Below are positions 4,925-21,053 of a DNA stretch of 64,000 nt, piece after piece. How positions within the stretch are numbered: the stretch's first letter is position 1; each line of letters starts with the position of its first letter. The DNA comes from Capnocytophaga periodontitidis. GTDB lineage: Bacteria; Bacteroidota; Bacteroidia; Flavobacteriales; Flavobacteriaceae. Made by a program: the position numbers and the translations under genes. The stretch covers positions 186,001 to 250,000 of the forward strand of contig NZ_JAEFDB010000003.1 of assembly GCF_016126015.1 (NCBI RefSeq), in the 5' to 3' direction. Under the pieces are notes generated by a model that searched no databases, was not told the DNA's origin, and worked only from the letters and a program-made list of their open reading frames with translations.

Positions 4925-5296
4925 ATGGAAATTACACAAGCCCTTAAAACAGAAATTTACCACACCCTTACCGACTTTTTAGAAGCCTATAAAGCTGAAG
5001 ATGCCCAAGTATTAGCTGAAAAGTTTGATATTTCGGGAGAATTTTTAGAAGAAGTCTATGAAATGCTTGACTTTGTAGAAGATAAAAGCGTATTGCACCT
5101 TTTCCCGATAGAAGAAATGGACAAAGAAGAAGGTGGAGGGGTGAATTTAGAGGTGTATAACTTCAACAATGATGATACTGCTGTAGGAGTAGAAGCCCAC
5201 TTGTGGGATGATCAAGAATATTTTGCCATCATCAAAGGATATTACAACCTTAGAGACCAATTTCCTAAGTTTGTATTTCACTACTTTAGTTGTTAA
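4925..5296 (+). CDS. acidic hypothetical protein, tandem paralogue 1
   Basis: 123 residues, strongly acidic. It opens MEITQALKTEIYHTLTDFLEAY, a helix, followed by a segment with FDISGEFLEEVYEMLDFVEDK and a C-terminal beta region ending FPKFVFHYFSC. No membrane segment or signal peptide. It is closely similar to the gene at 5397-5768 in the first 65 residues and in the final PKFVF segment, and divergent in between. The family is unknown. A small, acidic, duplicated and co-transcribed protein fits an immunity-type protein, but this is inference. Confidence 0.75.
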   Translation: MEITQALKTEIYHTLTDFLEAYKAEDAQVLAEKFDISGEFLEEVYEMLDFVEDKSVLHLFPIEEMDKEEGGGVNLEVYNFNNDDTAVGVEAHLWDDQEYFAIIKGYYNLRDQFPKFVFHYFSC

Positions 5297-5396: not shown

Positions 5397-5768
5397 ATGG
5401 AAATTACACAAACCCTTAAAACAGAAATTTACTACGCCCTTACCGATTTTTTAAATGCTTATAAATCGCAAGATACCCAAGTATTAGCTGAAAAGTTTGG
5501 TATTTCGGGAGCGTTTTTAGAAGAAATCAATGAGACACTTGATTTTGTAGAGGATAAAAACGTGTTGCACCTCTTTCCTATAGAAGATATAGATAAGGAA
5601 GTGAATAAACTACGCGAACTGACCTTGTATAAAGATAAAAAGATGAATAAACTTGTGGTAGAGGCTTGTGTATATAATGATAAAAATGAATGTATAGGGC
5701 TTATAGTAGGCGATTATCCTTTATTTGAATATTCTCCTAAGTTTGTGTTTACTTATTTTGATGTATAA
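5397..5768 (+). CDS. acidic hypothetical protein, tandem paralogue 2
   Basis: 123 residues, the second copy of the 4925-5296 gene. The N-terminal two-thirds match almost residue for residue (MEITQTLKTEIYYALTDFL, KFGISGAFLEEINETLDFVEDK). The section from about residue 68 (VNKLRELTLYKDKKMNKLVV) has diverged, while PKFVFTYFDV at the end is conserved. The 44 bases before its start copy the end of the 4589 gene, so the duplication unit includes that junction. The function is unknown. Confidence 0.75.
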   Translation: MEITQTLKTEIYYALTDFLNAYKSQDTQVLAEKFGISGAFLEEINETLDFVEDKNVLHLFPIEDIDKEVNKLRELTLYKDKKMNKLVVEACVYNDKNECIGLIVGDYPLFEYSPKFVFTYFDV

Positions 5769-8461: not shown

Positions 8462-10165
8462 CTAATATTTCTTTACTTGTCCTAAACTAACAGTAAAGAT
8501 TCCAAAATCATCAATCAGCATACTTTTTTTCTTGACTCCTTGGAGGGAGAAAAGTCCGTCCAATTCACGCTGGCTACGGCGGCGCATCACCCAGTCTTTT
8601 TCCTGATGGCTCTTCAGGACAAAGGCAATGGTTTTGAGCTGGGGGTGCCATGGCTGTCCTGTATAGATGATATACCCATTGTCCGAGATAGAAACCACCC
8701 CCTTGATTGCCTCAGAGGCCAAGATATTATCGCCAAAAAGCTCAAAAATACCTGAGATGATGGTGATATTGGGCGAATAATTTAGTTTGCGGTAAGTATC
8801 AGCCTCAAAACAATTGTAATTGGTAAAGCGAATATTCTGGTAGCCACGCTCTTTGATAATTTGCTCTCCCTTCTGTATGTTGGCTGGTAGGAACTCATTG
8901 ATAACGATCTCCACTTCAGGGTGGCGCTCTTTGATATCAAAAAGGTAGTTGCCCACTCCACCTGCGATGTCCAATATTTTTACCTCCTGTTCTTGGGCTT
9001 GTAGGGCTTGTATAGCCTTTTCTACCTGTTGTAGGAGGTGTCTCTTGCGGATACGTACCCCGCGCCAGCCTATGGCATTGAGATAGCTTTTGTCCATCCA
9101 ACGACCTATACCCCACTTGCCTTGTGGCGTGTTTTTATATACATAATCCATGGAGGCGCCAGAATCGAAGCCATAGGTAAGCCCTACAGTCATACCACCA
9201 CTGAGGTGACCAAGCTTGCTCAACGCCCATTTCTGAAGATGGTAACCCCAACGCTCTCTGGTGGGAATCAGTTCATATTGCATGGTCTCAAATTCTTTCT
9301 GAGTAAAGAGATCAGAATCAAGAGTAGGAGTAGGCAAGGGTGCAGAGAAAGCCTTTTGGATAAAGTGTTGTAGGAGCTTATATACTTCCTCACGGCCTTG
9401 CTCGAAGAGAATTCCATGATGGAAGCCCTCCAAGGTAACAAACTCTTTTATAGGGGAGGATAGGTTTATATAAAACTGCTTTTGCTGTCGGTTAATCACC
9501 ACAAAGTCTTTTTTAGCGGAGAGCAGTAGGGTAGGGGTGGTGATTGCAGCGGCATCTTCCACCAATCGCTTACCAGCATTGGCAAGGTCAATGAGGAGTT
9601 TGCCATTGATAGAGCGGGTGATGAGAGGGTCATTATCGTAAGCCTGTTGCTGCTTAGTGTCGCGAGTGAGCATCTTGGATTTTACATAGCTCTTAACAAT
9701 CAGTTTAGGATTGATTTTTAGAGCCAACTCGATGGCTTGCTTGGCCATAGGAACGATCAGGTTGATCTCAAAGGCAGGAGCCAAGAGCGCCATGCCAGCG
9801 ATGCGGGGTGCAAAATCATGCACCCAAGCCGATGTGATTACCCCGCCAATACTATTGGCCACTACAAAGATATCTTCCTCGCGTACCTCATAGTGCTGCC
9901 CAAGGAACTTGGCAAAGGTATCCAAGTCCCGTACCGAATCCATGAAAATAGGAGATACAGCGGCTTTGGTGTGCCCATGTCCACGCATGTCAAAAGCAAA
10001 GATGTTGTAGGCAGCAAAGAGCGGATGGGTAGCAAATTCCTGTAGACGCTCCCCATACTCATGCCCTCTATGGATTACGATAAGGGTCTTTTGTCCGGGC
10101 TTGTAATTCCATTCGTAGAAGAATAGTTCTTCCCCTTCATGACTTTTGAAAAAACCTGTGTTCAT
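8462..10165 (-). CDS. YnbC-like bifunctional alpha/beta hydrolase - SAM methyltransferase
   Basis: 567 residues from the ATG at 10165; an upstream in-frame start would overlap the promoter box. The N-terminal half (about 1-280) is a lysophospholipase-like alpha/beta hydrolase with FDMRGHGHT, nucleophile elbow VVANSIGGV, acid region SAKKDFVV and His in EGFHHGIL. The elbow reads A-N-S-I-G, so the usual first Gly of GxSxG is Ala. The C-terminal half (about 300-567) is a class I methyltransferase with motif I ILDIAGGVGNYLFDI. This fusion and length match E. coli YnbC. It is the last gene of a lipid-type operon and has its own promoter-like box. It probably acts on a lipid head group or acyl chain; the substrate is unknown. 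Confidence 0.88.
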   Translation of the reverse strand: MNTGFFKSHEGEELFFYEWNYKPGQKTLIVIHRGHEYGERLQEFATHPLFAAYNIFAFDMRGHGHTKAAVSPIFMDSVRDLDTFAKFLGQHYEVREEDIFVVANSIGGVITSAWVHDFAPRIAGMALLAPAFEINLIVPMAKQAIELALKINPKLIVKSYVKSKMLTRDTKQQQAYDNDPLITRSINGKLLIDLANAGKRLVEDAAAITTPTLLLSAKKDFVVINRQQKQFYINLSSPIKEFVTLEGFHHGILFEQGREEVYKLLQHFIQKAFSAPLPTPTLDSDLFTQKEFETMQYELIPTRERWGYHLQKWALSKLGHLSGGMTVGLTYGFDSGASMDYVYKNTPQGKWGIGRWMDKSYLNAIGWRGVRIRKRHLLQQVEKAIQALQAQEQEVKILDIAGGVGNYLFDIKERHPEVEIVINEFLPANIQKGEQIIKERGYQNIRFTNYNCFEADTYRKLNYSPNITIISGIFELFGDNILASEAIKGVVSISDNGYIIYTGQPWHPQLKTIAFVLKSHQEKDWVMRRRSQRELDGLFSLQGVKKKSMLIDDFGIFTVSLGQVKKY

Positions 10166-10186
10166 GGTATAATGATTTTGATACGA

Positions 10187-10194
10187 CAAAAATA
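10187..10194 (-). promoter_or_regulatory. -7 box TATTTTTG upstream of the hydrolase-methyltransferase gene
   Basis: On the coding strand TATTTTTG lies about 21 bases before the ATG at 10165, in the 66-base gap after the SDR gene. It fits TAnnTTTG, but I found no -33 TTG at the right spacing. The gene may have its own promoter as well as read-through from the operon. Confidence 0.45.
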
Positions 10195-10231
10195 GAAAAT
10201 TATTTTTTGATTACCTAATTTTTTGTTAGAA

Positions 10232-10978
10232 TTAGTTGTGATTTTGCATCCATTTGGCTTTTCTGTACATTAGTAAGGACAGCAAAGGCTTAGGCAGTAG
10301 CGAGAGTAATTGCATGAGCCACTTCATACGAGTAGGGAAGAGGTGTAGGCTTTTCTTTTGAGTAATAGCCCTGCTGATTTCGGCTACTGCTCTATCTTCA
10401 CTCACCAGAAAAGGTTTCTTAGAGAGATTGTTTTGGTTGAGCTTGTAAAGCTTTTGGGTGGCTACATACCCAGGCGCAATAGAGGTGATATAGATGCCAA
10501 AGGGGCGTAAGGCACGCCTATAGGCATCGGCTATCTGTAAAACACTGCGCTTGGTCTTGGTATATAGGCTGGAGGAGGGATAGTCCAAAATCCCTGAGAT
10601 AGATGCTAGCAGGACGATTTGGCCTCCATGATGAGCCATAAGTTCTCGGCCAACCTCCAAGGTATTGACGGCTCCTATGATATTGGTTTGTAGCATACTG
10701 ACCGCCTCCTCGTAAGAAATTTCTCCTACCACATCCTCGGCATAGCTACCCGCACAGTTGATAAGTAAGGAGAGGGTGTCTGAGCCTACAAACTGTCGTA
10801 TCACCTGGGTTAATAGTGCTTTGTCTATAACATCGGCCTTATAACTCTCAAAAGGAACTGCCTTGGGGAGCTTGCTAAGATCTCTGCCGCATACCCCAAC
10901 CCGATGGCCGCTTTGCTGGTAGAAGTGAGCCAAGTCAAACCCTATGCCAGTGGTGCCTCCTATGATAAATACATTCAT
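10232..10978 (-). CDS. SDR-family NAD(P)-dependent oxidoreductase
   Basis: 248 residues. The Rossmann nucleotide-binding motif IIGGTTGIGFDLA opens the protein. NCAG follows the fourth strand. Catalytic Ser is in LLASISGI and the YxxxK pair in LYTKTKRSV. The C-terminus ends with a hydrophobic and basic stretch (MQLLSLLPKPLLSLLMYRKAK) that suggests membrane association, as in lipid-acting 3-ketosphinganine or acyl-DHAP reductase-like SDRs. Its ATG overlaps the stop of the patatin-like gene by four bases, so the two are translationally coupled. A role in reducing a lipid ketone is inferred. Confidence 0.88.
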   Translation of the reverse strand: MNVFIIGGTTGIGFDLAHFYQQSGHRVGVCGRDLSKLPKAVPFESYKADVIDKALLTQVIRQFVGSDTLSLLINCAGSYAEDVVGEISYEEAVSMLQTNIIGAVNTLEVGRELMAHHGGQIVLLASISGILDYPSSSLYTKTKRSVLQIADAYRRALRPFGIYITSIAPGYVATQKLYKLNQNNLSKKPFLVSEDRAVAEISRAITQKKSLHLFPTRMKWLMQLLSLLPKPLLSLLMYRKAKWMQNHN

Positions 10979-12015
10979 AAGCTAAAGGTGTTAAGAATAG
11001 TTTGGTAACCATAGTCCCATTGCCGCTCTATCTGCTCTCGGTAAGAGGGATAGTCCTTGGGAAAGTGAATTCCTATCTCCAGATGCTTCCAATTGATATA
11101 TTTCTCAGAGTAAAAGCCCTTTAGAACGGTAGTTGCTCTTCGAGTATCTATCCATTGGGCAGGATAGGAAGCCACCGACGCCAACCGCTCGTTGCCACTA
11201 AAGCCCAAGACGGCACGTACCAAAGACTCTTCGGTAGGAGAGTAGGCCTGCTTGTGCTCAGCAATTACAGTAGTTGAAAGCGCATAAGCCAGCTCCATAG
11301 GAACAAGGTCAATAGCCCCGCCTGCATAGTATGTCCCCTGATAGCTTACAGGAGCTACATAGAACATATCCGAGACAGAAATACGGGCAGCCCAGAGCAA
11401 GGGAATAGCCGTTTCCACACTTATATCGGTTGCTACGGCCGAAAGCGTATAGTTGGATTCGGTATGTTGCAGTGTCTCAAGAGGGATCCTCTGGGCAGTC
11501 TCAGGGTCGGTTATGAGCACCTCTTGGTAGAGTTTTCGCTTACCCCTACGCTTGCCACACTCATGGGGGGCAAAGCACATCTTTGCTCCTATGATGATAG
11601 TGGGCAAGGCAGCAGAAAAAGCTAACTTGGTCAAGGAGGGGAGTAGCCCCGATAGGTCTTGGGCCATTTCTACCAAATAGCGTGTATATACATCCTCTAC
11701 TAAGGGAGCACGACGCCAGTCATAGCGCTTCTGTAGGACTAAAAGCCCCAAGCGATATAGCTTGCTATAAGGGGTAAGGGACAGGCTTTGGATAAAGTGG
11801 TAAAACTCCTGTGATTGCAGATAGGCTTTTCTCTCTGTATTATTAGCAAAAGCATTGATTACCAAGGCAGCAAAAGCCCCACCACAGCTAGCAATAAGTA
11901 GCTCAGGAGCTTTGCCTATATCACACAACGCTGCATACATACCATTGTATAAGGCAAAGCGGGTGCCTCCTCCGGAGAGAAGCAAACTACGGGAAAAGGG
12001 CTTTATCGTATCCAT
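10975..12015 (-). CDS. patatin-like phospholipase family protein with degenerate catalytic dyad
   Basis: About 346 residues from the ATG at 12015. A TTG at 12027 would extend deeper into the upstream gene and is rejected. The patatin oxyanion loop is present (LLLSGGGTRFALYNGMY). The nucleophile elbow reads LLIASCGGAF, i.e. I-A-S-C-G instead of GxSxG. The dyad region reads YYAGGAIDLVPMELA, where patatins have DGG-x3-N-x-P, so the catalytic Asp is Ala and the Asn is Leu. The fold is recognisable, but classical lipase activity is doubtful. It overlaps the CdsA-like gene by 13 bases and the SDR by four. Confidence 0.83.
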   Translation of the reverse strand: MDTIKPFSRSLLLSGGGTRFALYNGMYAALCDIGKAPELLIASCGGAFAALVINAFANNTERKAYLQSQEFYHFIQSLSLTPYSKLYRLGLLVLQKRYDWRRAPLVEDVYTRYLVEMAQDLSGLLPSLTKLAFSAALPTIIIGAKMCFAPHECGKRRGKRKLYQEVLITDPETAQRIPLETLQHTESNYTLSAVATDISVETAIPLLWAARISVSDMFYVAPVSYQGTYYAGGAIDLVPMELAYALSTTVIAEHKQAYSPTEESLVRAVLGFSGNERLASVASYPAQWIDTRRATTVLKGFYSEKYINWKHLEIGIHFPKDYPSYREQIERQWDYGYQTILNTFSL

Positions 12016-12779
12016 AGGTAAAACCAAATACAGTTGAACAAGAGACTATCTATGCGATCCAAGAGACCACCATGACCAGGAATCAGTTGGCTGGTGTCCT
12101 TTACCCCCGCCCGCCGCTTGAGGTAAGAGAAAGTCACATCGCCCCAGAAACCAAAAAAGCTAATGAATAAGCCTACAAAAACTAATGTATGTAGTGCAAT
12201 AGGAAGCCTCAGCAAGTAGCCTAAGCCCACACTCAAAAAAGGGGTGAGCAGTAAGCCGCCTACAAACCCTTCCACGGTCTTATTGGGGCTTATCTTGGGT
12301 AAGATCTTGTGCTTGCCAAAGCGCTTTCCAGTGAGGTATTGGAAGATGTCGTTGAGTTCGGTCGTTACCACCAAGAAGATGAACCACTCCACCCCTTGTG
12401 GCTTCATACGTAAGAAAGTCAGGTGAGGGTAGGCTGCCAAAACAATCAGTAGGGAAAGGGGCAATCCTAAGGGGATTTGCCTAAGGCATAGATATAGGAT
12501 AAGGCCTATCCCCACAACCATACAAGCTTCTACCATATAAGTGGAGTAGTTGGGACAGCTCCATAGTAAAACCCCTTGTAACAAGGGAATAGCCATACGC
12601 CAATAGCTCGGATTAAAACCAAAGAGCCCGCCCAATTCCGTAAGGGCTTGAAAGCTTACCCATAGGGAAAAAAGACACATGGCGTAGGGGTGGGAGACAG
12701 CCGCAGCAAAAACACAGATAATCACTCCCCAGCTCCTGATACGAAGCGGTACATCGGCATATTTGTTGTCAAGCGGCAT
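12003..12779 (-). CDS. CdsA-family phosphatidate cytidylyltransferase (YnbB-like)
   Basis: 258 residues with about seven hydrophobic segments. The C-terminal CTP-transferase signature is complete, with SYLKRRAGVKDTSQLIPG followed by HGGLLDRIDSL. The upstream KTVEGFVGGLL is also typical. It activates phosphatidic acid with CTP to give CDP-diacylglycerol. This copy overlaps the CDP-alcohol phosphatidyltransferase gene by 11 bases. It is probably a pathway-dedicated paralogue of the housekeeping CdsA, as E. coli YnbB is next to YnbA. Membrane protein; function of the family firm, pathway product unknown. Confidence 0.9.
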   Translation of the reverse strand: MPLDNKYADVPLRIRSWGVIICVFAAAVSHPYAMCLFSLWVSFQALTELGGLFGFNPSYWRMAIPLLQGVLLWSCPNYSTYMVEACMVVGIGLILYLCLRQIPLGLPLSLLIVLAAYPHLTFLRMKPQGVEWFIFLVVTTELNDIFQYLTGKRFGKHKILPKISPNKTVEGFVGGLLLTPFLSVGLGYLLRLPIALHTLVFVGLFISFFGFWGDVTFSYLKRRAGVKDTSQLIPGHGGLLDRIDSLLFNCIWFYLWIR

Positions 12780-13371
12780 AAAGTCCTTTTTTTAAGCGGG
12801 TGAAAGTACTTAAAAGTAGCAAGGCAATAACTATGGCAAAAACCACTTGAGAGTAGGCTTGTATTCCCACACCAAAGTAGGCAAGCAGCCCATAGATACC
12901 CATCAGCAGTGCTCGGTCGCTCTTGCCCATAGGCCCCTCATAGCGCCTTTGCCCTCCTAAGACCTTGCCCATGACGCCAGCAAACTCATTGAGTACGCTC
13001 AGTACAATAAAAGCTACCACCCAGTAAAGGCTTTCGGGGTGGTACTTTAGCAAGGGGAAGAAGATAAATACATCCGAGACCACATCGCCCACCTCATTGA
13101 GTACCTCTCCTAAGCGGGAGGTTTGTCCGAACTCTCGTGCCATCATACCGTCAAGAGCATTGAGGATCATACGCACCAACAGCCCTATGGGCAGTGCCAA
13201 AAAGAAAAGTGGTACCGCCGAAGCCTCCCAAAAGAGCACGCCAATCCCAAAGGAGAACACAATGGCCACTACAGTAATCTCATTGGCAGTAACACCTCTC
13301 CTGTGTAGCCATACCAGTAGCGGGTGCAATAGCTGCTGGAATTTAGGTTTTAGTTTGTATACAGAAATCAT
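12769..13371 (-). CDS. CDP-alcohol phosphatidyltransferase family protein (YnbA-like), variant motif
   Basis: 200 residues with several membrane helices. The CDP-alcohol motif is present but altered. The canonical form is D-x2-DG-x2-AR-x8-G-x3-D-x3-D. Here it reads N-x2-DG-x2-AR-x8-G-x3-N-x3-D (LNALDGMMAR, then GEVLNEVGD), so the first and third Asp are Asn. Family members transfer a phosphatidyl group from CDP-diacylglycerol to an alcohol. With the adjacent CdsA-like enzyme it would form the first two steps of a dedicated phospholipid pathway. It heads the operon. The acceptor alcohol cannot be read from the sequence. Confidence 0.88.
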   Translation of the reverse strand: MISVYKLKPKFQQLLHPLLVWLHRRGVTANEITVVAIVFSFGIGVLFWEASAVPLFFLALPIGLLVRMILNALDGMMAREFGQTSRLGEVLNEVGDVVSDVFIFFPLLKYHPESLYWVVAFIVLSVLNEFAGVMGKVLGGQRRYEGPMGKSDRALLMGIYGLLAYFGVGIQAYSQVVFAIVIALLLLSTFTRLKKGLYAA

Positions 13372-13968: not shown

Positions 13969-14862
13969 GAAGCTGTTTAAACTTTTTCCTATAATAAAGT
14001 AAAAGTTCCCGAAAATTAGTAATTTTGTGTTTGAAAAAAAAAGAACACCAAAATTCAGGAACTTTGGGCAAAGATACAATAAATATTTGGATTATTCCCT
14101 TTTTAAGTGTAGGAAAAAGAGGATTTAAAAGTAATTTTGATTTAGCTCAATATTTTTATTGATTCTCAAGAGATTAAAAATAGGGGTGCAATGGAGAGAA
14201 CTTCCAATTGAGAGCTATTTTGAAAAAGGAAAAATCTCTTGGCAAAATGTCTATTACTACTTCAATAAATGAAGTAAAGATGGTAGTTTTCAGCGAGTAT
14301 GGTTGAATCTATTAAGCAAGAAGAAAAGAAAATTAGATATGTCTTGCGTTCAATGGGATGGTAGTCATACACGTTGTCGCCAAAAAGGAGAATCTACAGG
14401 CTATCAAGCAAGAAAAAAAGCCGTAACCACAAATAGCATTTTTTTTGTGATAATAAAGGGCAAATGATAGCAATGGGAAGCCTTAAAGCAGGAAATCACA
14501 ATGATTTATATGAAATAGAAGAAGTACTAAAAGAAATTTTAGCTTTATTAGAAGAAGCAGAGATAGAACACAAAGGTCTGTTTCTCAATGCTGATGCAGG
14601 ATTTGATAGTAAGTCTCTTAGAGAGTTTTTAGAAAGCCAAGAAATTACAGCAAATATTAAACCTAATCCCCGAAATGGAGAGCAACCAGATGTTTATTTT
14701 GATGAAGAATTGTACAAAAATAGGTTTAAGATCGAACAAGCAAATGGTTGGCTTGACGGATATAAAGGTTTGATAATGAGATATGAGTATCTTGATGTAA
14801 CTTGGATTGGAATGCTTCTATTAGGGTTTATATCCAAGTTCCTCAAAAAAGTTTAAACACGT
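13969..14862 (+). mobile_element. IS5-family insertion sequence, decayed (copy 1)
   Basis: The ends are inverted repeats: GAAGCTGTTTAAACTTTTT on the left, and AAAAAAGTTTAAACACGTTT on the right. The transposase reading frame begins near 14070 and carries IS5-type DDE motifs: QWDGSHTRCRQKGESTGYQA, LKAGNHNDLYEIEE, FLNADAGFDS and KIEQANGWLDGYKGLIMR. It is broken at least three times. One base is lost near 14145 relative to the copy at 25.6 kb, a stop (TGA for TGG) sits near 14271, and there is a slip in the T-run near 14440. The longest open piece is 14464-14856. A TAATTTTG promoter box lies at 14020-14027. Inactive. Confidence 0.85.
14020..14027 (+). promoter_or_regulatory. IS-borne -7 box TAATTTTG
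   Basis: It matches TAnnTTTG and lies about 45 bases before the transposase frame. The same sequence is present in the IS remnant at 60.2 kb. Confidence 0.4.
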
Positions 14863-15389: not shown

Positions 15390-15396
15390 TTGAGTG

Positions 15397-15921
15397 ATGA
15401 TACATAGTAACATTGAAATTGTATTAGGAGATATCACTAAAATTTCCGTAGATGCCATTGTGAATGCCGCCAATACTTCTCTACTTGGTGGAGGCGGTGT
15501 GGATGGAGCTATTCATAGAGCAGGAGGCAAAGCACTCACTGAAGAATGTGAGAAGATAAGAAATAAACAAGGAGGTTGCAAGGTAGGTAGCGCAGTTATT
15601 ACTACTGCGGGCAATTTGCCTGCTAAATATGTTATTCACACAGTAGGTCCGGTGTGGAATGGGGGGACACATAATGAAGAAAACCTACTGGCACAAGTTT
15701 ATATCAGTTGTTTGGAGTTGGCTTTAGAGCATCAAGTAGCCACTATTTCATTTCCTAATATCAGTACTGGAAGGTATAGATTTCCGAAGGAAAAAGCAGC
15801 ACAAATAGCGCTTCATACCATAGCTGATTTCTTGGAAAAAACGGATAAAATCAAGCAGGTGAAGATGGTTTGTTTTGATCAAGAAAATTACGATATTTAT
15901 ACAAACATACACAAGATTTAA
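15397..15921 (+). CDS. macro-domain protein, O-acetyl-ADP-ribose deacetylase type
   Basis: 174 residues from the ATG at 15397; a GTG one codon upstream also fits. A stand-alone macro domain close to the YmdB/MacroD class. IEIVLGDITKISVDAIVNAA binds the adenine/ribose. NTSLLGGGGVDGAIHRAGG is the catalytic loop with the conserved Asn and Asp. GNLPAKYVIHTVGPVW and SFPNISTGRYRFP follow. Such proteins remove ADP-ribose from O-acetyl groups or from ADP-ribosylated proteins and nucleic acids. Paired with DUF6794 and next to WG and DKNYY genes, it could reverse toxin-mediated ADP-ribosylation. That last point is inference. Confidence 0.92.
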   Translation: MIHSNIEIVLGDITKISVDAIVNAANTSLLGGGGVDGAIHRAGGKALTEECEKIRNKQGGCKVGSAVITTAGNLPAKYVIHTVGPVWNGGTHNEENLLAQVYISCLELALEHQVATISFPNISTGRYRFPKEKAAQIALHTIADFLEKTDKIKQVKMVCFDQENYDIYTNIHKI

Positions 15922-15951: not shown

Positions 15952-16590
15952 ATGAACACAAACAAGCAAGAAAAATATGATGAAATAACCGATTTTCACA
16001 AGGGCTTTGCTTGTGTAAGGCAAGGCGGCAAATGGGGCTATATCAATGAGAAGAGAACCCTTATTACCCCTATAAAGTACGATTTTGTCTATGACTTCTT
16101 TCAAGGAGTGGCAATGGTGAGAATAGGTGCACAATACGGATTGATAGATACCTCTGGCAAGGAGATTACTCCTATAAAATACGACCTTATAGATGACAAC
16201 GACTTCTATAACCACCGTCCTGCAGCAGCCTTGTTGAATGGCAAATGGGGCTTTATCAATGAGAAAGGAGAAGAGGTGATTCCGTTTATCTATGAAGATA
16301 CTACCTATTTTCATAAAGATTATGTAGCCGTAAAGAAAGACGGTAAATGGGGTTTTATCAACCAAAAAGGCGAACAAATCATTCCTTTTCTCTACGATGA
16401 TGCCTCTTATTTTACTGAAGGGCTTGCTTTGGTAAAAAAAGGCGATAAATATGGTTATATCAATGACAAAAACGAAACCGTCTTCCCTTTTATTTATGAC
16501 GATGGCGCTCTCTTTGAGAATGGTAAAGCGTGGGTACAGATAGGGGATAAACAATTTGAGATTAATAAATTAGGTATAGAAATAAAATAA
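15952..16590 (+). CDS. WG-repeat (KWG) protein
   Basis: 212 residues made almost wholly of five WG repeats of about 35-45 residues, each with a G-K-W/Y-G-[FY]-I-[ND] core and a following [TI]-P-[IF]-x-Y-[DE] element (KWGYINEKRTLITPIKYD, KWGFINEKGEEVIPFIYED, KWGFINQKGEQIIPFLYDD). There is no signal peptide, unlike the WG protein at 60719, so it is cytosolic. Repeats are divergent at DNA level, so this copy is old. WG proteins probably bind proteins. It is nine bases upstream of the DKNYY gene, forming an operon. Confidence 0.9.
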   Translation: MNTNKQEKYDEITDFHKGFACVRQGGKWGYINEKRTLITPIKYDFVYDFFQGVAMVRIGAQYGLIDTSGKEITPIKYDLIDDNDFYNHRPAAALLNGKWGFINEKGEEVIPFIYEDTTYFHKDYVAVKKDGKWGFINQKGEQIIPFLYDDASYFTEGLALVKKGDKYGYINDKNETVFPFIYDDGALFENGKAWVQIGDKQFEINKLGIEIK

Positions 16591-17537: not shown

Positions 17538-20500
17538 ATGCTAAACAGAATTTACCAATATATCGCCACTCATAAACTTGCTACCTTCTCATTCTTTACC
17601 GCTTGGGCGCTCATAGCCATTTATGGCTTGAGTCAGTTGCGATTTGAAGAGGATATCACCAAAGTACTCCCTCAAAACGACAAGACGAACCTCACTTCTA
17701 AGGTGCTCAAGCAACTCAATTTTGCCGATAAAATCTCGGTAATGGTAACAGCCGAAAAAGGCGGAACGCTCACCGATATGCAGTCAGTTGCCGAAACTTT
17801 GCGCGATACCCTCAACGCTTCTATGACGAAGTATATCAAAAGTATTCAGGGGGTTATAAACGAAGAAGAAATCGACGAGACTTGGCAGTTTGTAAACGAC
17901 CACCTACCTCTTTTTCTAAATGATGAAGATTACGCTTATTTAGAACGCCGTTTAGCCCCCGATAGTCTCAAATCAATGGTGGAGAGTCAGTACAAAACGA
18001 TGCTCACGCCTGCGGGTATGGTGGCACAACAGTTTATCCGTAAAGACCCCTTTGGTCTCACTTTTCGCGGTTTGCGCAAACTTCAAGAGCTCAATACAGG
18101 CAACGATTTTAAGATTGCCAATGGTTTTCTCACTACTAACGACGAGCAGCATATCCTCTTCTTTATCAACCCTAAGTACGATGGCAACGACAGCGAGCAC
18201 AATGCCGCTTTTGTCGTAAGTTTAGATAAGTTGCAAGACCATCTCAACGCCCAGTATCAAGGAAAAGTGCGTGTAGATTTCTTTGGGGCTCCCTTTATCT
18301 CGGTGAGCAACGCTTCTCAAATCAAAACTGATATCCTCACTACAGTACTCATTTCACTATCAGCACTTTATTTATTGCTTGTCTTTTTTTATCGAAGTGT
18401 TTATATCCCATTTATCGCGTTTATCCCTTCTGCTTTTGGGGTGCTCTCAGCTTTGGCGACACTCTATGTGCTCAAAGGCAGTATTTCGGCAATTTCTATC
18501 AGTTTAGGGGCAGTGCTCTTAGGGGTTACTATCGACTATTCACTACATATCCTCACTCATTACAAGGTAGCTAAAAACACTGCCGAGTTGTACCGTGCTG
18601 TAACTGTGCCTATCTTGCTCAGCAGTATCACTACCGCCATTTCATTCCTCTGTTTGCTCTTTGTGCATTCTGAGGTGATGCAAGATTTAGGCGTGTTTGC
18701 TTTCGTGGGCATAATGGTATCAGCCATATTATCGTTGGTGCTTGTGCCTCATTTCTACCGTGGCAATCGTAATATCGAGGTGCGCAAAACCTTTTTAGAC
18801 CGCATAGGGGCTTATCCATTTCATCACAACAAGTGGGTGGTTGGAGCTTGCTTACTGCTGATAGCGGTGAGTTGTTTTACTTTTCATAATGTCCGTTTCA
18901 ATGGCGATATTGCCAATATCAACTATATAAACGAACGTTATAAGGCAGCTGAACATCAATTAGAGAACATCACCGATAGTGAATACAAATCACTTTATGC
19001 TGCTGCTTATGGCAACTCTTTAGAGGAAGCCTTAGAGCGCAATTATACACTATATCAGCAGTTGCAAAGTTATAAAGCGCACGATAGTATCAAGCAATTC
19101 AGTTCTATTGGGGGGATTGTATTGCCTAAAAAAGAACAAGAAGCGCGATTGCAACGATGGAAAGATTTTTGGAATGCCGAAAGACAGCAATTTCTAAAAC
19201 AACAACTGATAGAAAGAGGAAATGAAGTTGGTTTTAAAGAAGAAACCTACGCACCTTTCTACCAAAGTATAGCTGGTGATTTTGAAGTTATAAAAAACCT
19301 CGATGCTTATAAAGCCCTTTCAGTTATTCCGTTAGAAGATTTTATTACTGAAAAAGAGGGCTTTTATACCATTGCCAATCTCGTAAAGCTCACTCCCGCC
19401 GAGCGAGACTCTTTTATTCATTCAATAGAAAAACGCACGCCTACTGTTGTTATCGACCGCAAGAACCTAAGTGAAACGTTTTTAGGCAAACTCAAAGACG
19501 ATATATTGCTGTTAGTAAACTATTCGTCTATCGCTATTTTCCTCATACTGCTTTTGTTTTTTAGGCGTGTAGAATTGGTGTTACTCACTCTTATTCCTAT
19601 TGGGGTTACAGGGGTAGTTACTTCTGCTCTGATGAACTTTTTTGGCATAGAATTCAATGTGTTTAGTATGATTGTCTGCACTTTGGTATTAGGACATTCA
19701 GTAGATTTTAGTATTTTTATGACTTGTGCGCTGCAAAAAGACTATACCGATGGTAAAAATGAACTTCCTGTGTACAAAGTCTCAGTGCTTTTAGCGTCTA
19801 TTACTACTTTTTTGGCTATCGGTACGCTTATTTTCGCCAAACACCCCGCCTTAAAATCAATTGCATCGGTATCAGTAATAGGTATTTTCACTGCTTTGGC
19901 AATAACTTTCGTATTTTACCCTACGATATTTAAGTTTTGTATCTTCCGCCGTTCTGATAAGGGTCGTTCTCCGGTGAGTTTGCGTCTTTTGCTGCAATCC
20001 ATACTGCTAACTACCTATTATGCACTATCGTCTATTATTCTCTCCAATATAGGTTGGCTACTTGCCAAAATAACTCCTAAACGTACTATGTGGCTCAGAC
20101 GTTTAGCAGCTTCGCTCACTACTTCAGTGCTTTATGCCAATCCTTTTGTGCGCAAAAAGGTAGAGAATCCACACCATATACAGCTTACAACTCCTTCGGT
20201 AGTAATTGCCAATCATACCTCGTGGCTTGATACTTTGGCAATAGGGCTCTTCACACATCGCGTCAGTTATATGGTAAATGATTGGGTGTATAACTCGGTA
20301 GTATTTGGACGTTATGTGCAGACAATGGGCTTCTTTCCAGCCTCTGAAGGCATAGAAAAAGGAATGCCCTTATTCGAAAAGAACTTGAAAAATGGTATTT
20401 CAGTAATGATTTTTCCAGAAGGCAAACGCTCTGATACCAACCAAATACACCGTTTTCACAAAGGTGCTTTTCTAATAGCCGAACATTTCCAAACACCTCT

Positions 20501-21053
20501 CGTGCCCGTGTATATTCACGGTTGTTCGGAAGTGCAACCTAAGGGCGATGTGATTATCTACGATGGCGCTATTACGGTAGTAGTAGGCGACCCTATAACA
20601 CCTGATGATGAGCGTTTTGGCAACACTCCACGCGAAAGAGCCAAACAGATAGGCGCTTTCTACCGCCAGCAATTCCTCGCCTTGCGCAAGCGATTGGAAG
20701 GAGTGGATTACCTAAAAAAGAAACTGTTTTTGAATTATTTATACAAAGAAAATTATGTGGTGCGTGCTGTCAAAGAAGATTATAGGCAGCATCGCGAACA
20801 CTATCACGAGCTTGTACATTCACTACCCGAAAAAGCGCGTATCTTGCATATCGCCGATGATTATGGTCAGTTAGATTTCTTGCTATTGCTCACCTATCCT
20901 GAGCGTGAAATTGTATCCGTCATCGCCGATGACGAGAAGCGCGCCATCGCACAGCATAGTTACCTCACCAAAATCCGCAAAATACAATATGTGAAAGAGC
21001 GTCCAGAAGGAAAAGATTTTGATGTAGTAATTAAAGGTAGAGAAACAGCTTAG
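17538..21053 (+). CDS. trifunctional MMPL transporter - lysophospholipid acyltransferase - methyltransferase-like protein
   Basis: 1171 residues. Part 1 (about 1-820) is an RND/MMPL exporter with an N-terminal membrane helix, a periplasmic domain, a membrane bundle at about 270-410, a second periplasmic domain and a second bundle at about 650-810. Part 2 (about 880-1060) is a PlsC-type acyltransferase with NHTSWLDT at about 892 and FPEGKRS at about 958. Part 3 (about 1070-1171) resembles a class I methyltransferase, but motif I is weak (ARILHIADDYGQLDFLL). Relatives in Bacteroidota occur in aryl-polyene/flexirubin-type pigment or lipid export. No pigment genes are adjacent. It has its own promoter. 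Confidence 0.88.
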   Translation: MLNRIYQYIATHKLATFSFFTAWALIAIYGLSQLRFEEDITKVLPQNDKTNLTSKVLKQLNFADKISVMVTAEKGGTLTDMQSVAETLRDTLNASMTKYIKSIQGVINEEEIDETWQFVNDHLPLFLNDEDYAYLERRLAPDSLKSMVESQYKTMLTPAGMVAQQFIRKDPFGLTFRGLRKLQELNTGNDFKIANGFLTTNDEQHILFFINPKYDGNDSEHNAAFVVSLDKLQDHLNAQYQGKVRVDFFGAPFISVSNASQIKTDILTTVLISLSALYLLLVFFYRSVYIPFIAFIPSAFGVLSALATLYVLKGSISAISISLGAVLLGVTIDYSLHILTHYKVAKNTAELYRAVTVPILLSSITTAISFLCLLFVHSEVMQDLGVFAFVGIMVSAILSLVLVPHFYRGNRNIEVRKTFLDRIGAYPFHHNKWVVGACLLLIAVSCFTFHNVRFNGDIANINYINERYKAAEHQLENITDSEYKSLYAAAYGNSLEEALERNYTLYQQLQSYKAHDSIKQFSSIGGIVLPKKEQEARLQRWKDFWNAERQQFLKQQLIERGNEVGFKEETYAPFYQSIAGDFEVIKNLDAYKALSVIPLEDFITEKEGFYTIANLVKLTPAERDSFIHSIEKRTPTVVIDRKNLSETFLGKLKDDILLLVNYSSIAIFLILLLFFRRVELVLLTLIPIGVTGVVTSALMNFFGIEFNVFSMIVCTLVLGHSVDFSIFMTCALQKDYTDGKNELPVYKVSVLLASITTFLAIGTLIFAKHPALKSIASVSVIGIFTALAITFVFYPTIFKFCIFRRSDKGRSPVSLRLLLQSILLTTYYALSSIILSNIGWLLAKITPKRTMWLRRLAASLTTSVLYANPFVRKKVENPHHIQLTTPSVVIANHTSWLDTLAIGLFTHRVSYMVNDWVYNSVVFGRYVQTMGFFPASEGIEKGMPLFEKNLKNGISVMIFPEGKRSDTNQIHRFHKGAFLIAEHFQTPLVPVYIHGCSEVQPKGDVIIYDGAITVVVGDPITPDDERFGNTPRERAKQIGAFYRQQFLALRKRLEGVDYLKKKLFLNYLYKENYVVRAVKEDYRQHREHYHELVHSLPEKARILHIADDYGQLDFLLLLTYPEREIVSVIADDEKRAIAQHSYLTKIRKIQYVKERPEGKDFDVVIKGRETA

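What the first reader, a model, noticed from the sequence alone, without database searches (positions are those of the whole stretch)
8462..13371. A five-gene YnbABC-like phospholipid operon with patatin-like and SDR genes
The order CDP-alcohol phosphatidyltransferase, CdsA-like cytidylyltransferase, patatin-like protein, SDR and hydrolase-methyltransferase fusion is compact. Three of the four junctions overlap (11, 13 and 4 bases). The first, second and last genes correspond in type to E. coli ynbA, ynbB and ynbC, whose product is not known. Here an SDR and a patatin-like gene are added. Together they could make, reduce, deacylate and methylate an unusual phospholipid. The pathway product is unknown.
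Basis: partly seen in the sequence, partly recalled or inferred. Interest (0 to 1): 0.78.

Follow-up and report, generated by a model that had tools for sequence, protein, structure and literature searches.

The report
Ynb lipid operon with cysteine patatin
A mouth bacterium carries a conserved but uncharacterised set of genes that probably makes an unusual membrane phospholipid, and two of its enzymes have swapped the standard catalytic residues of their families in all the relatives compared, which points to chemistry still to be tested.

Summary
The five genes are real, correctly placed and under purifying selection in Capnocytophaga (window close to C. sputigena). They are relatives of E. 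coli ynbA, ynbB and ynbC. The SDR and patatin genes are not local additions: they form the Bacteroidota version of a widespread operon, usually with ynbD, which this genome lacks. Patatin+SDR excludes a PlsC-like acyltransferase gene of other Ynb clusters (35 vs 36 of 80 loci, none with both). In Capnocytophaga and in a family sample, patatin and YnbC occur in exactly the same genomes, even where unlinked.

The 'deacylate' step is doubtful. The patatin keeps the fold, but its Ser nucleophile is Cys (41 of 42 rows; the other was misread by my script) and the DGG Asp is never Asp (0 of 42). YnbA departs too: signature Asp 1 and 3 are Asn (88 of 88; Asp in all 32 control enzymes). The window's other catalytic sites that I checked are intact. 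No inositol-phosphate synthase was found, so an inositol head group is unlikely.

Best reading: an accessory phospholipid pathway in which Cys-patatin and SDR do the acyl step. Product and acceptor are unknown.

The parts
12769..13371 (-). YnbA-type CDP-alcohol phosphatidyltransferase, 200 aa; signature NxxDGxxAR...GxxxNxxxD instead of DxxDGxxAR...GxxxDxxxD
13159..13161 (-). Asn71 codon, at the place of metal-ligand Asp 1 of the CDP-alcohol phosphotransferase signature
   Evidence: N in 88 of 88 rows with a residue there, 1 gap (L085, a split gene); D in 30 of 30 control loci and in the 2 other enzymes of the own genome
13096..13098 (-). Asn92 codon, at the place of metal-ligand Asp 3
   Evidence: N in 88 of 88; D in 30 of 30 controls and in the 2 other own enzymes
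12003..12779 (-). YnbB-type CdsA-like cytidylyltransferase, 258 aa, CDS signature intact (KD...PGHGGLLDRIDS)
   Evidence: signature in 79 of 81 rows, the 2 misses being fragments of 124 and 110 aa
10975..12027 (-). patatin-fold protein with Cys at the nucleophile position and no DGG Asp, 350 aa (ATG start at 12015 possible)
11884..11886 (-). Cys48 codon at the patatin nucleophile position (ASCGG for GxSxG)
   Evidence: C in 41 of 42 rows; the other row, L049, was translated in a wrong frame by my script and reads Cys, where 34 of 34 rows have Cys
11323..11325 (-). Ala235 codon at the place of the patatin DGG/A catalytic Asp
   Evidence: never D in 42 rows: A 30, M 4, L 2, F 2, I 1, T 1, gap 1 (L063), E 1 (L049, the wrong-frame row; A)
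10232..10978 (-). classical SDR, 248 aa, with a hydrophobic C-terminal segment; Gly motif, Ser126, Tyr139 and Lys143 intact
   Evidence: 44 of 44 rows for G7, S126, Y139, K143
8462..10189 (-). YnbC: monoacylglycerol-lipase-like alpha/beta hydrolase (Ser113-Asp228-His258) fused to a PF12147 class I methyltransferase, 575 aa

Best explanation
This is a Ynb-type accessory phospholipid operon in its patatin/SDR form. YnbB turns phosphatidic acid into CDP-diacylglycerol beside the housekeeping CdsA. YnbA, a divergent CDP-alcohol phosphotransferase, moves the phosphatidyl group from CDP-diacylglycerol onto an acceptor that is probably not inositol phosphate and is still unknown. YnbC methylates the acceptor or the finished lipid and trims an ester with its monoacylglycerol-lipase-like half. 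The Cys-patatin probably forms an acyl-cysteine thioester and acylates a lyso- or keto-precursor, doing the step that a PlsC-like acyltransferase does in other Ynb clusters; the SDR then reduces a keto group that only this route creates (for example acyl-dihydroxyacetone phosphate). Shown: gene set, conservation, mutual exclusion, co-occurrence, the residue replacements, and intact CDS, SDR and YnbC sites. Inferred: every reaction, the order of steps, the acyltransferase role and the product.
Confidence: 0.45

Rival explanations
1. Lipid turnover or remodelling operon: the patatin is still a lipase (through Cys48) and with the YnbC hydrolase breaks lipids down, as the first reader's 'deacylate' step suggests.
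For: Closest solved folds are patatin-type phospholipases; the YnbC hydrolase half is monoacylglycerol-lipase-like with an intact triad.
Against: The patatin has neither the Ser nor the Asp of the hydrolytic dyad in any correctly read relative. Of 30 other Bacteroidota patatin loci, 26 fitted my pattern: all 26 had Ser and 23 a DGG in the stretch read; L138, L148 and L149 showed no DGG. CDP-lipid synthesis genes in the same operon point to making lipid.
Confidence: 0.15
2. YnbA and the patatin are catalytically dead and serve as scaffolds or lipid-binding regulators for the intact enzymes.
For: Two of the four signature Asp of YnbA and both catalytic residues of the patatin are replaced.
Against: The replacements are themselves invariant or nearly so (N71 and N92 in 88 of 88, C48 in 41 of 42 with the exception misread), as are D74, D96 and D100 (88 of 88) and GKSDR, R142 and R192 of YnbA (89 of 89). 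A dead enzyme usually drifts at its old site. Asp 4, the likely base, is kept; its Asn mutant is nearly inactive in the Mycobacterium enzyme (PMC4634129, passages).
Confidence: 0.15
3. Backup glycolipid pathway: YnbB is dedicated to MPIase-type GlcNAc-diphospho-diacylglycerol, as proposed for E. coli.
For: Overproduced E. coli YnbB raises MPIase but does not replace CdsA (PMC6362211; PMC7018664; passages read).
Against: [quoted passage not shown] YnbC is accompanied by YnbA in 78 of 80 loci and by a nearby CDS gene in 70 of 80, so a role for YnbB alone leaves the rest of the operon unexplained.
Confidence: 0.08
4. Inositol-lipid pathway like BT_1522-1526 of Bacteroides.
For: YnbA's best NCBIfam hits are archaetidylinositol-phosphate and phosphatidylinositol-phosphate synthases, far below their cut-offs (73 of 180 and 45 of 170 bits).
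Against: No match to the inositol-phosphate synthase family PF07994 in the genome (99.6% complete), while the control found it in Bacteroides; E. coli is not among the controls found but was found with PF12147. The basic residue after Asp 4 that binds inositol phosphate in PgsA1 (R94; PMC6506517, passages) is hydrophobic in 87 of 88 YnbA. This feature is not special to YnbA: the two other enzymes of the own genome have Met and Leu there.
Confidence: 0.04

Closest known systems
Escherichia coli ynbABCD
   Same: YnbA, YnbB and YnbC are homologous over nearly full length (42, 37, 38% identity); same N...N signature in YnbA.
   Different: E. coli has ynbD and no patatin or SDR beside it; the window has patatin and SDR and no ynbD.
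Ynb clusters with a PlsC-like acyltransferase (Pseudomonas, Variovorax, Hafnia, Sulfuricurvum and others)
   Same: PT, CDS, YnbC, YnbD core in most of them.
   Different: An LPLAT gene (PF01553 in the one example scanned) in place of patatin + SDR; never both patatin and LPLAT in 80 loci.
Patatin-like phospholipases (PNPLA), e.g. PlpD, patatin, cPLA2
   Different: Cys for the nucleophilic Ser, no DGG Asp.
CDP-alcohol phosphotransferases (PgsA1/PIP synthase, PgsA, PssA)
   Same: Pfam family over the cut-off; Asp 2, Asp 4, both Gly and the Ala of the signature. A hydrophobic residue after Asp 4, as in the two other enzymes of the own genome.
   Different: Asp 1 and Asp 3 are Asn. Unlike the 30 control loci, which have K after Asp 4 and are of PgsA type as far as scanned (3 of 3).
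Bacteroides BT_1522-1526 inositol-lipid cluster (PMC9246714, passages read)
   Same: A CDP-alcohol phosphatidyltransferase in a dedicated Bacteroidota lipid cluster.
   Different: No inositol-phosphate synthase found in the window genome; canonical DX2DGX2AR...GX3DX3D there; no YnbC, patatin or SDR named in the passages read.
Acyl-DHAP route of eukaryotes (GNPAT, then an SDR, AYR1/DHRS7B; recalled, no call)
   Same: Acyl transfer followed by an SDR reduction would explain why patatin and SDR travel together.
   Different: Different acyltransferase fold; the bacterial reaction is a guess.

Membership tests
Ynb operon (E. coli ynbABC type) | homologues of YnbA, YnbB and YnbC encoded together | tested here: met
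Ynb operon (E. coli ynbABC type) | YnbD (PAP2 + dual-specificity phosphatase) | tested here: not met
   No match in the own genome at E 0.001; 2 of 20 Capnocytophaga genomes matched: a remnant with stops in G299 and a weak match in G298 (1.9e-4). 72 of the 80 loci have it.
CDP-alcohol phosphotransferases | eight conserved residues D1xxD2G1xxAR...G2xxxD3xxxD4 (PMC4634129, passages) | tested here: not met
   D1 and D3 are N in 88 of 88; the R is R in 74 of 88 (K 10, N 3, S 1); the other five are met. Still homologous by Pfam.
Phosphatidylinositol-phosphate synthase | basic residue after Asp 4 and a source of inositol phosphate | tested here: not met
   V/I/L/A/C in 87 of 88, Q in 1; no PF07994 in the genome
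CdsA-type cytidylyltransferase | CDS signature KD...GHGGxxDRxDS | tested here: met
Patatin-like phospholipase | patatin fold and GGGxR motif | tested here: met
Patatin-like phospholipase | Ser of GxSxG | tested here: not met
   Cys48; Cys in 41 of 42 rows and 34 of 34; aligned to Ser of solved patatins
Patatin-like phospholipase | Asp of DGG/A | tested here: not met
   0 of 42 rows. Caveat: 3 of 26 control patatins with Ser also showed no DGG in the stretch read.
Classical SDR | Gly-rich motif, Ser, YxxxK | tested here: met
   44 of 44 for G7, S126, Y139, K143
Monoacylglycerol-lipase-like hydrolase | Ser-Asp-His triad and fold | tested here: met
PF12147 class I methyltransferase | domain over the cut-off with a SAM-binding motif | tested here: met
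   297 bits, cut-off 21; D407 81 of 82, G411 81 of 82
PF12147 class I methyltransferase | methyl acceptor | not testable with these tools
   needs an assay
Lysophospholipid acyltransferase role | acyl transfer by the Cys-patatin | not testable with these tools
   mutual exclusion with LPLAT is indirect only

The most novel reading that the evidence does not exclude
The patatin-fold protein founds a cysteine acyltransferase class that has replaced PlsC-type enzymes in Ynb pathways, and the N...N YnbA enzymes form a separate kind of CDP-alcohol phosphotransferase with an altered metal site and an acceptor not yet known. Together they make a phospholipid class not yet described, in oral and environmental Bacteroidota and, by the LPLAT or core version, in E. 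coli and many other bacteria.
Probability: 0.3. Interest if true: 0.8.

Novelty: new variant of a known kind. Interest (0 to 1): 0.55.

Why it matters
This work turns a vague 'phospholipid operon' into a sharp question: what do a Cys-patatin and a phosphatidyltransferase with two Asn in its metal site make? It also gives a list of parts, two interchangeable acyl modules and residues whose change should break the pathway. If the acyltransferase reading is right, annotation of this patatin subfamily as phospholipase is wrong in its carriers.

Tried and rejected
Inositol head group: rejected as unlikely. Anti-phage defence (CapV/CapE patatins are among the nearest folds): four of the five operon proteins had no match in PADLOC (the CDS was not scanned), and the operon partners are lipid genes. 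Plasmid collection: the only patatin match is Moraxella osloensis pNP7-2. Literature: searches (126 papers, 20 listed; 6; 143, 15 listed; 11; 0; 15; 0) listed no paper whose title or abstract start names a product of YnbA, YnbC or YnbD; most hits are yeast-medium names. Of the papers that mention ynb genes I read passages of PMC6362211, PMC8609368 and PMC7018664 only; others, such as PMC12871917 and PMC3855560, were not opened. One search (patatin with cysteine nucleophile) listed no Cys-patatin title; only its listing of 10 of 36 papers was seen. The methyltransferase half of YnbC got no usable structural neighbour: the hydrolase half filled the lists; the profile search gave only weak class I methyltransferases such as tRNA 5-carboxymethoxyuridine methyltransferase (E 0.001). 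Promoter and terminator scans were within the range of shuffles. One planned control, co-occurrence in Chryseobacterium, could not be run.

A claim withdrawn on checking: I first took the hydrophobic residue after Asp 4 of YnbA as a third peculiarity, because 30 of 30 controls have Lys there. Those controls are the best-scoring loci and of PgsA type as far as scanned (3 of 3 best hits pgsA, 2 over its cut-off). The two other enzymes of the own genome have Met and Leu. So it speaks only against a PgsA- or inositol-phosphate-like acceptor site.

Limits of the counts. Rows come from 91 sources (window, L030-L119) and include near-copies (window, L038 and L040). One patatin row (L049) was translated in a wrong frame by my script. 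The 30 control patatins are the best-scoring loci, one of them from the own genome; 4 of 30 did not fit my pattern. In one search, 8 of 89 YnbC rows under 480 aa (frame breaks or my frame picking) were left out, the Moraxella row among them. YnbD: 4 of 77 rows were short and left out; of 73, 72 hold a loose C-x5-R anywhere and 72 a PSxH, but only 42 the stricter HCxxGxxR(S/T). LPLAT HX4D: 35 of 38. 'Absent' in a locus means absent within the fetched flank (about 8 kb at most) at tblastn E 1e-4.
Full report
What is there. Five minus-strand genes fill 8462-13371: CDP-alcohol phosphatidyltransferase (PT), CdsA-like cytidylyltransferase, patatin-like protein, SDR, and a hydrolase-methyltransferase fusion. 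The stated overlaps of 11 and 4 bases are right; the 13-base one assumes the ATG at 12015. The host is a Capnocytophaga: the nearest named locus, C. sputigena NCTC11653, is 99% identical in YnbC. The genome also holds a second CdsA and two other CDP-alcohol phosphotransferases, so these genes probably serve a side branch.

The set holds together. tblastn links PT, CDS and YnbC to E. coli YnbA, YnbB and YnbC at 42, 37 and 38% identity. In these 80, PT lies near YnbC in 78, CDS in 70 and YnbD in 72. The usual Bacteroidota order is PT-CDS-patatin-SDR-YnbD-YnbC; the window lacks only YnbD. All five window gene types also occur together on a Moraxella osloensis plasmid, where the YnbC match contains a stop codon, and in two Undibacterium, a Desulfobacterales MAG and a Fusobacterium MAG.

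Two interchangeable modules. Of the 80 loci, 35 have the patatin and all 35 also the SDR; 36 have a PlsC-like acyltransferase (PF01553 in the one example scanned); none has both; 9 have neither (Fisher p 1.2e-14). The p value ignores relatedness. On the YnbC tree (81 of 89 rows) the patatin label needs 5 changes, all forced by starred branches; one of them is a truncated contig (L045) and one Fusobacterium vincentii (L030, core genes only), so the real switches are few: Bacteroidota with Fusobacteriota, Undibacterium, and Desulfobacterales.

Co-occurrence without linkage. In 20 Capnocytophaga genomes PT, patatin and YnbC occur in the same 6 and in none of the other 14. In G299 and G312 YnbC sits more than 600 kb away from the other four genes on the same contig, yet it is kept. 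In 397 genomes of the family, near full-length YnbC (299 bits or more) and full-length Cys-patatin (over 490 bits) occur in the same 4 genomes; all other hits are partial and weak (at most 30 and 41 bits). I take this as the strongest sign of one pathway.

The acceptor. The residue after Asp 4 is described as always K or R in the enzymes compared in the PgsA1 paper, where R94 is essential for inositol-phosphate binding (PMC6506517, passages). It is hydrophobic in 87 of 88 YnbA and K in 30 of 30 control loci. The controls are of PgsA type as far as scanned, and the two other own enzymes have Met and Leu. So YnbA is not alone in this, and the fair conclusion is only that its acceptor site is unlike that of enzymes using glycerol phosphate or inositol phosphate. 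No inositol-phosphate synthase (PF07994) was found in the genome.

What it probably does. I read it as a phospholipid-making side pathway. CDP-diacylglycerol from YnbB (both CdsA and YnbB make it in vitro, PMC7018664, passages) is used by YnbA with an unknown acceptor; YnbC methylates and trims. The acyl step is done either by an LPLAT or by patatin + SDR. A Cys nucleophile without the Asp base fits acyl transfer better than hydrolysis; this is inference. The SDR would then reduce a keto group made only on this route; an acyl-DHAP-like step is one possibility, by analogy with eukaryotes that I recall and did not look up. YnbD, lost here (no match in 18 of 20 Capnocytophaga genomes, a remnant with stops in G299, one weak match in G298), would remove a phosphate from an intermediate; how Capnocytophaga does without it is open.

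History in this genus. Operon G+C is 46.7% against 39.3% in the rest of the window, and higher than the flanks in 5 of 6 Capnocytophaga copies (not in G312; two of the six, window and G309, are near-copies). By blastn of the flanks the copies lie in four surroundings: window with G309, G296 with G308, G299, G312. This fits gain by transfer or repeated relocation. dN/dS is 0.04-0.16 in 14 comparisons, with dS often above 1, so the genes are in use.

What is known. The searches named under Tried and rejected listed no described product. YnbB has been tied to the glycolipid MPIase by overproduction, but its knockout did not significantly change MPIase (PMC6362211, passages). In a transposon screen ynbB was a hit in an enterobacterial common antigen background, but was not needed for that lipid (PMC8609368, passages).

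Verdict. The operon is a member of a known but uncharacterised kind; the new points are the two exchangeable acyl modules, the Cys-patatin, and the N...N phosphatidyltransferase.

Noticed in passing
window 17538-21053 (+): 1171-aa fusion of an MMPL/RND-type exporter with a PlsC-like acyltransferase (PF01553), about 4 kb upstream of the operon on the other strand; possibly lipid export, linkage to the operon not tested.
   Followed up: partly
window 14464-14856 (+): Fragment of a DDE transposase (PF01609) upstream of the operon, an insertion-sequence remnant.
   Followed up: partly
window 4925-5296 and 5397-5768 (+): Two tandem paralogues of 123 aa with similar N-terminal halves; the first has no Pfam family, the second was not scanned.
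   Followed up: no
window 15394-15921 and 15952-16590 (+): Macro-domain protein followed by a WG-repeat protein with six matched stretches.
   Followed up: no
L036 7931-8530 (G299), also L124: Truncated ynbD with stop codons after the SDR gene, a trace of the phosphatase gene lost in Capnocytophaga.
   Followed up: partly
L031 8293-13434: Moraxella osloensis plasmid pNP7-2 carries the patatin-type set with an unannotated ynbA and a ynbC interrupted by a stop codon, with insertion sequences nearby.
   Followed up: partly
L077, L078: Bdellovibrionota-type Ynb clusters with further lipid-related genes: Methyltransf_2 O-methyltransferase in both, MMPL exporter and a TMEM164-family protein (L077), cytochrome P450 (L078).
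   Followed up: partly
L062, L064 (Hoylesella) and L094, L096, L097 (Xenorhabdus): Ynb loci without a CdsA-like gene nearby, suggesting that ordinary CDP-diacylglycerol can feed YnbA.
   Followed up: no
L030 (NZ_CP084075): A 2.1-Mb record called a plasmid of Fusobacterium vincentii looks like a chromosome; its Ynb operon has only YnbC, YnbA and YnbB.
   Followed up: no
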